Source of the DNA: Gammaproteobacteria bacterium
GTDB lineage: Bacteria; Pseudomonadota; Gammaproteobacteria; JAUZRS01
Reading direction: 5' to 3'
DNA length: 64,000 nt
NCBI GenBank assembly: GCA_030949385.1
Contig: JAUZSP010000001.1
Span: 310,001-374,000, forward strand
In this document: piece after piece, positions 32,499-38,809 of the stretch
Layout: each line of letters starts with the position of its first letter
How positions within the stretch are numbered: position 1 is the first letter of the stretch
The notes under the pieces: model-generated
Databases searched by the model: none
What the model was told of the DNA's origin: nothing
Seen by the model: only the letters and a program-made list of their open reading frames with translations
Position numbers and translations under genes: made by a program

Positions 32499-33830
32499 TC
32501 AACGTTTGGCACAGAAACCCACCTTCGTTGAAGATAAGGGATTGAGACGTTCATTCCATGTCAACCCCGTGATCTCCACTTGGCCGCCCGTTTGCACCAT
32601 ATTGGAACTCCAATAGGTGCTGATGACACCCTCAATCGGCAGAGAAACCGTCCAAATCGCTAAAATATCATTCGGGTTTTTTACCGTGATTTTTTCACAG
32701 TAACCGCTACCCCAATCTGCAAACACATCCCGAGTAATAATCAGCTCGCTGTTCGAGACCTGACGCACCGGTTTTTTAATGCAGTAACCAAAGCTTGTTG
32801 ATGCCCCAGCTGTCAAGCCAAAACCTTGCGCTTGCAGTACACCTTCTTCCAGCATCTGCACATTCGCACTCCAAGCATTACTCAAAGTACCGTTCACCAG
32901 CAGATCAATAGTCCAATCTCGGCTGCGGCTGTCTGGATTTTGTACCGTTACCTTTTCACAATAACCGCTGCTCCAACTGGACGTTGTAACCCGAGACACC
33001 TCCAACGCATTCAGAGGCACATCGACCACTGCACTGGAGTTAATCCGGCTGACTTTAATGTAATCAAGGTCATAACGATAATGCTGATTCAAGCTACTAT
33101 CGGAAGTGGCCATCAACGCAGGACCATAGGCCTGTGACCAATTACTGTCTGCCGCCCAAAAATTACTGCGAATGGACATGGCCAAATCAGGCACGGGACT
33201 GTCAGTCTGTTTGACCAAAGTGCCGTTCAAATACCACTCGACTCGATCAGAGAACCAACGAATCGTATAGGTTTGCCACGCGGTGTAATCGTAACTTGCC
33301 AAGCTCAGTTGTGTACCGGCATGGAACACCCCGTCGTTATAAGAACCGTTAGGATCACCCCAGTTATTCCAACTGGTGGCCAAAAAGCTGTCACTGGGCT
33401 GAGCACTCAAGACCTCAACATCAATCTCATCCGCCCAACCTTGGCTGTCTTGCGCGTATAAAAACAGAGAAGAAACCAACCCTGGGGTCACTACTGAAGA
33501 GCGTACTCGCGCTTCAAACTCCAGACCGGTATCAACCGGAAAACTCGCCACACTGTAAATTTCAGCACCATACAAACTCGCCCCAGGCTCATTGGGGTTG
33601 TAGGTATCCAACGACATCGAAAGGTAATCCGTTGTTCCTTCTTGAGCAAAGGTCAAGGCATTGCCAAATTGAGTTCGTCCCAAATGCCACGTCGCCTCAT
33701 CCCAGAGCTGTGAATTGAGAGCCGTACCGCTAAAATCATCAAACAACAAGACTTCCGCAGAAGCCGTCGCCTGCAATCCCACCCATAAAACAGCTGCTGT
33801 AAACAGCTTACGCTTAGCACCTAACCACAT
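32499..33830 (-). CDS. Secreted GH16-like glycan hydrolase with two CBM2-like modules
   Basis: 443 residues, ATG at 33830. Signal peptide about 1-25 (LQATASA). The catalytic-type domain (about 26-270) contains DEIDVEV at 134-140, matching the E-x-D-x-E motif of GH16 (E135, D137, E139), with DDFSGTALNSQLWDE before and WYLNGTLVKQT after. Two related C-terminal modules (about 282-360 and 363-443) each have W-x-SGYCEK-(V/I)TV-(Q/K)NP and end with GYC or GFC, resembling cellulose-binding CBM2. GH16 enzymes cut beta-glucans, laminarin, agar or carrageenan; which one is unknown. A MITE is inserted 9 bp upstream of the start codon, separating the gene from an AAGG site. Confidence 0.85.
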   Translation of the reverse strand: MWLGAKRKLFTAAVLWVGLQATASAEVLLFDDFSGTALNSQLWDEATWHLGRTQFGNALTFAQEGTTDYLSMSLDTYNPNEPGASLYGAEIYSVASFPVDTGLEFEARVRSSVVTPGLVSSLFLYAQDSQGWADEIDVEVLSAQPSDSFLATSWNNWGDPNGSYNDGVFHAGTQLSLASYDYTAWQTYTIRWFSDRVEWYLNGTLVKQTDSPVPDLAMSIRSNFWAADSNWSQAYGPALMATSDSSLNQHYRYDLDYIKVSRINSSAVVDVPLNALEVSRVTTSSWSSGYCEKVTVQNPDSRSRDWTIDLLVNGTLSNAWSANVQMLEEGVLQAQGFGLTAGASTSFGYCIKKPVRQVSNSELIITRDVFADWGSGYCEKITVKNPNDILAIWTVSLPIEGVISTYWSSNMVQTGGQVEITGLTWNERLNPLSSTKVGFCAKR

Positions 33831-33831
33831 A

Positions 33832-33839
33832 AAAAATAC
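33832..33839 (+). repeat. Target-site duplication, left of MITE
   Basis: AAAAATAC, identical to 33994-34001 on the other side of the 154-bp element. Confidence 0.85.
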
Positions 33840-33993
33840 GTAACTACTCAGCCATATAACTTATTGATTTTTAATGAAAAAATATACCTTTATTGGGTGT
33901 TTTTGACCAACAAACGGCATTTTCACCATTTTGAAAAAAATCATATTGTTTATTATCAATGAGTTACGTTATCCAAGTGGGCTGAGTAGTTAC
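33840..33993. mobile_element. 154-bp MITE with IS66-type ends (GTAA..., 8-bp duplication)
   Basis: Terminal inverted repeats of 14 bp, GTAACTACTCAGCC at the left and its complement GGCTGAGTAGTTAC at the right. It is flanked by the perfect 8-bp direct repeat AAAAATAC. The interior is A/T-rich and has no open reading frame of note. Ends starting GTAA and 8-bp duplications are features of the IS66 family. No transposase of that family is in the window, so the element must have been moved by one elsewhere. Half of a second copy lies at 38755-38809. Confidence 0.85.
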
Positions 33994-34001
33994 AAAAATA
34001 C
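33994..34001 (+). repeat. Target-site duplication, right of MITE
   Basis: AAAAATAC, the partner of 33832-33839. From 34002 to about 34200 I see no gene; the bases CCTTAA at 34001-34006 read TTAAGG on the minus strand, the likely former ribosome site of the GH16-like gene. Confidence 0.85.
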
Positions 34002-34203
34002 CTTAAATAACCCCTAAATAACAACCAAATCCATGCCATCGTTTAGATTTAATCATCCCTTTACAACACCGTCTTTTTTATCAGTCCAAATAAAAAGCAA
34101 AACCTGACCCTAAAAAACAGCACGCTGATCCTACTCCATAAGCAGAGCCGACTCAAGATTCAAACGCATTCAAGAACGCATAAGTGGCCAACCCCAGCGC
34201 CTC

Positions 34204-37736: not shown

Positions 37737-38754
37737 GAGACCTTTGCGCGATAAGCCTAACCTTGAGACTTAACGCTGAAACCAACCTTTTAATCCTAAG
37801 CCGCTTCACTTTTGCTTAAATCCAGTGAAATCATCTAAAAACAGGGACGTTTTGTACCCTTTTCTGTTTTTTAGACGCAACTCGACTGCCTCACTGACAA
37901 ACCTCGTTTGATGTTGTGCGCCACGCACATCAATTCAAAGCGAGTCCGATTGCGGCTCAACCCCAGATAGCGGGCTTTTGCCATTCCGTAGTGCAATTTT
38001 AAAACACCAAAAACCCCACTTAACAAGTCGGTAAAACAGTTCGAATCGTGCAGACTGCCTGAACTGTAATCCACGGCTTTGATAAAGCCTTCTTCATCTA
38101 CATTGATATGGGCTTTGTAACCGTAGGTGCTTTTTCGCTTGCCATCCGATCCTGCTTTGACGTTCCAATCCGCCTCGGGGTCTTGTGTTGTACCGCCCTC
38201 TTTACGCTTATTTGGACGACATCGATTCGCTTCAATAACACTGGCATCCACAATGCTCACCTCACCAGATTTAATGTAAAGCCCCTGTTCAGCCAGTTGA
38301 TGGTTGATCTCTGAAAGCAGCACCTCCAGCAGTGAAAGCCGTTCCAACGTTTGTCTGAAGCGCCAGAAGGTGCTGTGATCGGGAACCGATTCCGAAATAT
38401 CTAAGGCAACGAAACGACGAAACAGCAGGTCTCTGGCAAGTTGTTTTTCTAGACCAGGGTCACTTAACCCATACCCGCTTTGCAGCAACAGGGCTTTAAA
38501 CATGATTAAGGGCGGCCACGCTTTTTCACCTTTACGGCGAGCATGAATCTCAGAGAGATGCGCTTCTATTCGCGACCAGTCAATCAGATCGTGAACCGCA
38601 TCCAGCTCTTTCAGGGCATCATGCTCTATCAGCAATGCGTCCGCTAAACTGCGTTGTTTTAAGTTCTTCCAGGCCATATTCAGTATCTATTTTGAGAGAG
38701 AAGATATTATCTCATGTTTTAGGAAATAAATGCACTGTATCGTGCAAAGGTCTC
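37737..38754. mobile_element. IS5-family insertion sequence, internally deleted
   Basis: Terminal inverted repeats of 17 bp with one mismatch: GAGACCTTTGCGCGATA at 37737-37753 and the complement of 38738-38754. Total 1018 bp, shorter than the roughly 1.2 kb of intact relatives. The right border is confirmed independently, because similarity to the MITE begins at 38755. The flanks (CATA on the left, AATA on the right) do not form a clean duplication, which suggests a later adjacent deletion. Confidence 0.85.
37871..38677 (-). CDS. IS5-family transposase lacking part of the catalytic core
   Basis: 268 residues, ATG at 38677. N-terminal helix-turn-helix and DDE start: ARRKGEKAWPPLIMFKALLL, DHSTFWRFRQTLE, and VDASVIEANR with the first catalytic Asp. 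After SLHDSNCFTDLLSG the frame jumps directly to VFGVLKLHYGMAKARYLGLS. Intact relatives have about 65 residues between these blocks, containing the second Asp (in D-K/S-GY/AY) and the catalytic Glu (in V-E-R). The deletion is in frame, near 38017. The product should bind the ends but not transpose. Confidence 0.88.
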   Translation of the reverse strand: MAWKNLKQRSLADALLIEHDALKELDAVHDLIDWSRIEAHLSEIHARRKGEKAWPPLIMFKALLLQSGYGLSDPGLEKQLARDLLFRRFVALDISESVPDHSTFWRFRQTLERLSLLEVLLSEINHQLAEQGLYIKSGEVSIVDASVIEANRCRPNKRKEGGTTQDPEADWNVKAGSDGKRKSTYGYKAHINVDEEGFIKAVDYSSGSLHDSNCFTDLLSGVFGVLKLHYGMAKARYLGLSRNRTRFELMCVAHNIKRGLSVRQSSCV

Positions 38755-38809
38755 AATAAAGGTATATTTTTTCATTAAAAATCAATAAGTTATATGGCTG
38801 AGTAGTTAC
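38755..38809 (-). mobile_element. Truncated second MITE copy, cut by the IS5 element
   Basis: A 55-bp perfect inverted copy of 33840-33894, the left third of the MITE. It ends at 38809 with the intact terminal sequence and is cut off at 38755 exactly at the IS border. The remaining MITE part is not found on the far side of the IS. Confidence 0.88.

What the first reader, a model, noticed from the sequence alone, without database searches (positions are those of the whole stretch)
33832..34001. A 154-bp MITE with perfect 8-bp target duplication
GTAACTACTCAGCC at 33840 and its exact complement ending at 33993 are bracketed by AAAAATAC on both sides. Ends starting GTAA with 8-bp duplications are features of the IS66 family (established knowledge). 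The interior is non-coding, so this is a non-autonomous derivative whose mobilising transposase is elsewhere.
Basis: partly seen in the sequence, partly recalled or inferred. Interest (0 to 1): 0.65.

Follow-up and report, generated by a model that had tools for sequence, protein, structure and literature searches.

The report
Small transposon with IS66-type (ISBst12) ends
This is a real 154-base jumping element with no genes of its own; it uses the ends of a known group of bacterial insertion sequences (IS66 family, ISBst12 group), is absent from the same site in a sister genome, and landed between the likely ribosome-binding site and the start codon of a sugar-polymer-degrading enzyme gene.

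Summary
The IS66 reading is supported and can be narrowed to the ISBst12 (single-ORF) group. The genome carries four full copies (two identical, one 98-99%, one 88%); three have different perfect 8-bp duplications. A half copy lies at window 38754-38809, cut by an IS5-type element. The one other genome held for the genus has no copy, and its orthologous site is empty, with one near-copy of the target. An intact 1487-bp IS66-family element elsewhere in the class has the same ends (27 of 28 bases), an 8-bp duplication and one 483-aa transposase. Published ISDge4 (ISBst12 group), seen to transpose, has near-identical ends. The host assembly holds no such transposase; its sister holds two broken pieces, so the driver appears lost or unassembled. 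The insertion separates a Shine-Dalgarno-like AAGG from the ATG of a GH16-CBM2 gene (effect inferred). Forty-seven more loci, from Gammaproteobacteria to Chloroflexi, pair the same ends 100-130 bp apart; 24 of 45 testable have perfect 8-bp duplications, around interiors in 19 groups. An ordinary kind of element, unusually well documented.

The parts
33840..33853 (+). left terminal inverted repeat GTAACTACTCAGCC
33980..33993 (-). right terminal inverted repeat (exact complement of the left)
33832..33839 (.). target-site duplication AAAAATAC, left copy
   Evidence: single copy (variant AAAAACAC) at the empty site of G001
33994..34001 (.). target-site duplication AAAAATAC, right copy
33840..33993 (.). 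154-bp non-autonomous element (MITE), A+T-rich, hairpin-forming (RNA fold z -6.2 on the minus strand); no Rfam match and no ORF of 80 aa or more across it
   Evidence: copies
38754..38809 (-). half copy of the same MITE (first 56 bp, 100% identical), cut off at the end of an IS5-type element
37737..38754 (-). IS5-type insertion sequence that truncates the half copy: ends GAGACCTTTGCGCGATA / GAGACCTTTGCACGATA, transposase ORF 37871-38677 (-). A neighbour, not the MITE's driver
32499..33830 (-). GH16 + CBM_2 gene (443 aa) whose ATG (33828-33830) lies 1 bp from the left duplication; the MITE separates it from its likely Shine-Dalgarno
34000..34008 (-). Shine-Dalgarno-like AAGG of the GH16 gene (within TTTAAGGTA on the minus strand), now 162 bp further from the ATG than in the empty arrangement

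Best explanation
A MITE of the IS66 family, ISBst12 (single-ORF) group. A DDE transposase of that group, encoded in trans, recognises the 14-bp ends GTAACTACTCAGCC, moves the 154-bp segment and duplicates 8 bp of target. Shown: the ends, the duplications at three of four sites, several copies, the empty site, and an IS66-family element with the same ends and duplication length. Inferred: that an IS66/ISBst12-type transposase moved this copy, that its source has since been lost from (or is missing in) the host assembly, and that the insertion weakens translation of the GH16-CBM2 gene by parting its Shine-Dalgarno from its ATG.
For: Exact ends and duplication. Four copies of 153-155 bp; 8-bp duplications AAAAATAC, GACGAGGC and GAAATAAC at three unrelated sites. 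Empty orthologous site in G001, where the MITE is absent. Intact 1487-bp element L133:2017-3503: ends GTAACTACTCAGCC/GTAACTACTCAGGC, duplication GAAAACCC, 483-aa protein matching NF033517 transpos_IS66 (298.9 bits, cut-off 180) and PF03050. G001 has the exact 14-bp end next to an IS66 N-terminal fragment (L077) and next to a C-terminal one (L078; PF03050, 2.4e-14). ISDge4 (IS66, ISBst12 group; single ORF; ends GTGACTACTCAGCA/GTAACTGCTCAGCA; 8-bp repeat; transposition observed) in PMC12898284. 24 of 45 testable loci elsewhere with the same paired ends have perfect 8-bp duplications.
Against: No matching transposase in the host genome (97.97% complete, 10 contigs). The interior has no match to the available IS66 pieces beyond the ends. 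The 88% copy has no clear duplication. Clean empty sites were not obtained for the other three copies. No transposition was observed.
Confidence: 0.93

Rival explanations
1. The MITE is driven by the IS5-type transposase next to the half copy (window 37871-38677).
For: The half copy abuts that element, and the two lie within 5 kb of the MITE.
Against: That element has its own, different ends (GAGACCTTTGC...), and the MITE fragment begins exactly where it stops, so it truncated a MITE rather than sharing ends with it. IS66-type proteins, not IS5-type, sit next to GTAACTACTCAGCC elsewhere.
Confidence: 0.02
2. It is mobilised by the host's own complete IS66 element (C9:41769-42650 and surroundings; three-ORF type).
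For: Same family; it is the only complete IS66 in the assembly.
Against: Its perfect 20-bp ends are GTAAGCGCTCAATAAACCCC, quite different after GTAA, and its transposase is only 23% identical to the one with matching ends.
Confidence: 0.05
3. It is a hairpin-forming RNA or regulatory repeat kept for function (for example a riboregulator of the GH16 gene) rather than simply a mobile element.
For: Strong predicted RNA hairpin (z -6.2) in the presumed 5' untranslated region of the GH16 gene.
Against: 8-bp duplications, empty allele and scattered copies show that it moved. No Rfam match, and no pair with compensatory changes among the four copies, whose covariation term is unfavourable.
Confidence: 0.03

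Closest known systems
ISDge4 (IS66 family, ISBst12 group), Deinococcus geothermalis
   Same: Ends GTGACTACTCAGCA/GTAACTGCTCAGCA against GTAACTACTCAGCC here; 8-bp direct repeat (PMC12898284)
   Different: Autonomous, single 449-aa transposase ORF, active transposition observed; the MITE has no gene
L133 element (G321:C25:205516-207002), IS66-family insertion sequence in the same class
   Same: Left end identical, right end with one mismatch; 8-bp duplication
   Different: 1487 bp with a 483-aa transposase; similarity of its interior to the MITE was not tested directly
Classical three-ORF IS66 elements (the host's C9 copy; ISPpa5a and ISPpa7 of Paracoccus, 8-bp repeats, PMC3281130)
   Same: GTAA start (C9 copy); 8-bp repeats (Paracoccus elements)
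   Different: Different end sequence after GTAA (C9 copy), extra accessory ORFs, 2.5-2.8 kb
MITEPsy1 of Pseudomonas syringae (PMC3189936)
   Same: Short, gene-less, with inverted ends, thought to be mobilised in trans; a bacterial MITE whose transposition was observed
   Different: Probably ISPsy2-derived (listed as IS5?), 4-nt duplication

Membership tests
MITE (miniature inverted-repeat transposable element) | Short, with terminal inverted repeats and no transposase gene | tested here: met
   154 bp, 14-bp perfect ends, no ORF of 80 aa or more across it
MITE (miniature inverted-repeat transposable element) | Target-site duplication at independent copies | tested here: met
   Three of four copies have different perfect 8-bp duplications
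MITE (miniature inverted-repeat transposable element) | Polymorphic site (empty allele) | tested here: met
   G001:C251, single target copy with one substitution and one A of length difference
IS66 family, ISBst12 group (as non-autonomous member) | Ends starting GTAA that match an IS66-family element | tested here: met
   27 of the 28 end bases match the L133 element; exact end next to IS66 gene pieces in G001
IS66 family, ISBst12 group (as non-autonomous member) | 8-bp target duplication | tested here: met
   same length for L133, ISDge4 and ISPpa5a/ISPpa7
IS66 family, ISBst12 group (as non-autonomous member) | Matching transposase in the same genome | tested here: not met
   Only the 23%-identical C9 IS66 with other ends was found at E <= 1. 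Not a defining feature of a MITE, but it leaves the driver inferred
IS66 family, ISBst12 group (as non-autonomous member) | Mobilisation in trans by an ISBst12-group transposase | not testable with these tools
   Needs a transposition assay

The most novel reading that the evidence does not exclude
The 14-bp ISBst12-group end is nearly all the transposase needs, and is conserved across phyla, so that unrelated interiors (19 similarity groups among the 47 genome-collection loci, several themselves palindromic repeats) have become mobile again and again between identical ends. MITEs of this group would then arise by capture of arbitrary short DNA between two ends, not only by internal deletion of one parent.
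Probability: 0.3. Interest if true: 0.5.

Novelty: new member of a known kind. Interest (0 to 1): 0.33.

Why it matters
It gives an ISBst12-group MITE with an empty allele, an identified parental type and an insertion between a likely ribosome-binding site and a start codon. The searches of the held paper library turned up no described IS66-derived MITE; that library is incomplete, and ISfinder was not available. The shared ends around unrelated interiors make it testable how little sequence an IS66-type transposase needs.

Tried and rejected
An IS5 driver (neighbouring element) was rejected on its ends. The host's three-ORF IS66 was set aside on its ends and its distance. Functional RNA: no Rfam match and no compensatory changes. 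Empty sites of the other three copies in G001: flanks only partly conserved, no clean result. Plasmid collection: no match. Viral contigs: one paired-end locus, L176, 7 of 8 duplication bases. The only paper in the library that prints the 13-mer GTAACTACTCAGC is an unrelated one. Weak DNA matches in other genomes of the class at E about 1e-3 to 1e-5 looked like chance A+T-rich similarity on inspection, apart from G010, which carries many copies of the 14-bp end.

Full report
Observation. GTAACTACTCAGCC lies at 33840-33853, its perfect complement at 33980-33993, and AAAAATAC flanks the 154-bp unit on both sides. In 100 dinucleotide-preserving shuffles of the window, four gave any such 14-bp pair and none gave one with an 8-bp flanking repeat.

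Copies. The host genome (2.87 Mb, 10 contigs, 97.97% complete) holds four full copies: the window copy; C8:133383-133536 (identical, duplication GACGAGGC); C3:88240-88394 (155 bp, one extra base, duplication GAAATAAC); and C8:176298-176450 (153 bp, about 88%, no clear duplication, probably older). A half copy (56 bp, 100%) lies at window 38754-38809. It is cut off exactly at the end of an IS5-type element with ends GAGACCTTTGCRCGATA and a transposase ORF at 37871-38677. That element's ends are unrelated to the MITE's.

Empty site. The one other genome held for the genus (G001) has no MITE copy at E <= 0.001, but it has the orthologous locus on C251. The two flanks, 96% and 93% identical over more than 1.1 kb each, overlap there by 7 bp. 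The junction reads CACATAAAAAAACACCTTAAATAA, against CACATAAAAAATACCTTAAATAA in the window with the MITE and one duplication copy set aside: one target copy, differing by one substitution and one A of tract length. Clean empty sites for the other copies were not obtained.

Which family. An exact search for the 14-bp end in 369 genomes of the class found it in 18. In G321 it bounds a complete 1487-bp element (L133:2017-3503): ends GTAACTACTCAGCC/GTAACTACTCAGGC, duplication GAAAACCC, one 483-aa protein that passes the IS66 cut-offs of NCBIfam NF033517 (298.9 bits) and Pfam PF03050 (145.6 bits). In G001 the exact end sits next to the N-terminal part of an IS66-type gene (L077) and, at another place, next to a C-terminal part (L078). 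IS66-type coding sequence also lies beside the end in G077, G010 (three loci) and G196. ISDge4 of Deinococcus geothermalis, a single-ORF IS66 element assigned to the ISBst12 group, has ends GTGACTACTCAGCA/GTAACTGCTCAGCA and an 8-bp direct repeat, and was seen to transpose (PMC12898284). IS66 with ISBst12-type ends is therefore well supported; that such a transposase moved this copy is inference.

Driver. The host's only complete IS66 has perfect 20-bp ends GTAAGCGCTCAATAAACCCC, and its transposase is 23% identical to the L133 protein; no closer relative was found in the host. The driver has been lost, is outside the assembly, or acted before this lineage. Three near-identical copies suggest recent movement (inference).

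Effect on the neighbour. The insertion lies immediately upstream of a GH16-CBM_2 gene on the minus strand (ATG at 33828-33830). In the empty allele the leader reads TTTAAGGTGTTTTTTTATG, and in the window without the element it would read TTTAAGGTATTTTTTATG: a Shine-Dalgarno-like AAGG at normal spacing. With the element, 162 further bp (the MITE plus one duplication copy) separate AAGG from the ATG, and what now precedes the ATG (GGCTGAGTAGTTACGTATTTTTT) has no obvious Shine-Dalgarno. The reading frame itself is intact and close to that of G001. Reduced translation is the expected outcome, untested. As RNA the element folds into a strong hairpin (z -6.2), but the four copies give no compensatory changes, so the fold is what inverted ends produce and is not evidence of RNA function. 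One promoter-like match lies inside the element on the strand of the gene; the region as a whole has no more such matches than shuffles give.

Distribution. A scan of the genome collection (one genome for each of 84,980 species) for the two exact ends 100-130 bp apart returned 47 loci, from Gammaproteobacteria (Parabeggiatoa, Thiomargarita, Methylococcales, Crenothrix), Chloroflexi and an Elusimicrobia bin, among others. Of 45 with both flanks readable, 24 have perfect 8-bp duplications and 10 more have 7 of 8. Their interiors fall into 19 similarity groups at E 1e-5, none similar to this MITE. The exact ends were the search condition, so end conservation is built in; the duplications and the diversity of interiors are not. 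Most of these records are metagenome bins, so taxon labels may contain binning errors; one interior group spans Dehalococcoidia and Elusimicrobia bins.

Verdict. A real MITE of a known insertion-sequence group, probably recently mobile; a new member of a known kind. The points of more than routine interest are the placement between a likely Shine-Dalgarno and its start codon, and the recurrence of the same ends around unrelated interiors.

Noticed in passing
window 38754-38809 with 37737-38754: A half MITE copy truncated exactly at the end of an IS5-type element; the other half is not on the far side, so a deletion or recombination accompanied or followed the IS5 insertion.
   Followed up: partly
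L077:2210-2850 (G001:C297): IS66 N-terminal fragment with an intact left end, in one open frame with a BrnA-antitoxin-like C-terminal stretch (residues 149-183); looks like a deletion fusion.
   Followed up: no
L096, L109, L113, L116, L117, L124: Chloroflexi elements with the same 14-bp ends share interiors containing GTCATTGCGAG-type sequences, which look like another dispersed repeat carried between IS66-type ends.
   Followed up: no
L114, L118 (Dehalococcoidia bin) and L121 (Elusimicrobia bin): Closely similar element interiors in bins of two different phyla: horizontal transfer or binning error.
   Followed up: no
L042:2000-3700 (G000:C8, around the 88% copy): The stretch beside the 88% MITE copy contains short sequences repeated many times in both genomes of the genus (24-bp core at query 1233-1256).
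   Followed up: no
L080:2956-4189 (G000:C1:376955-378188): A decayed IS66 fragment resembling the host's GTAAGCG-type element lies beside the same 273-aa gene that in G001 (L077) has the GTAACTACTCAGCC-type IS66 fragment beside it.
   Followed up: partly
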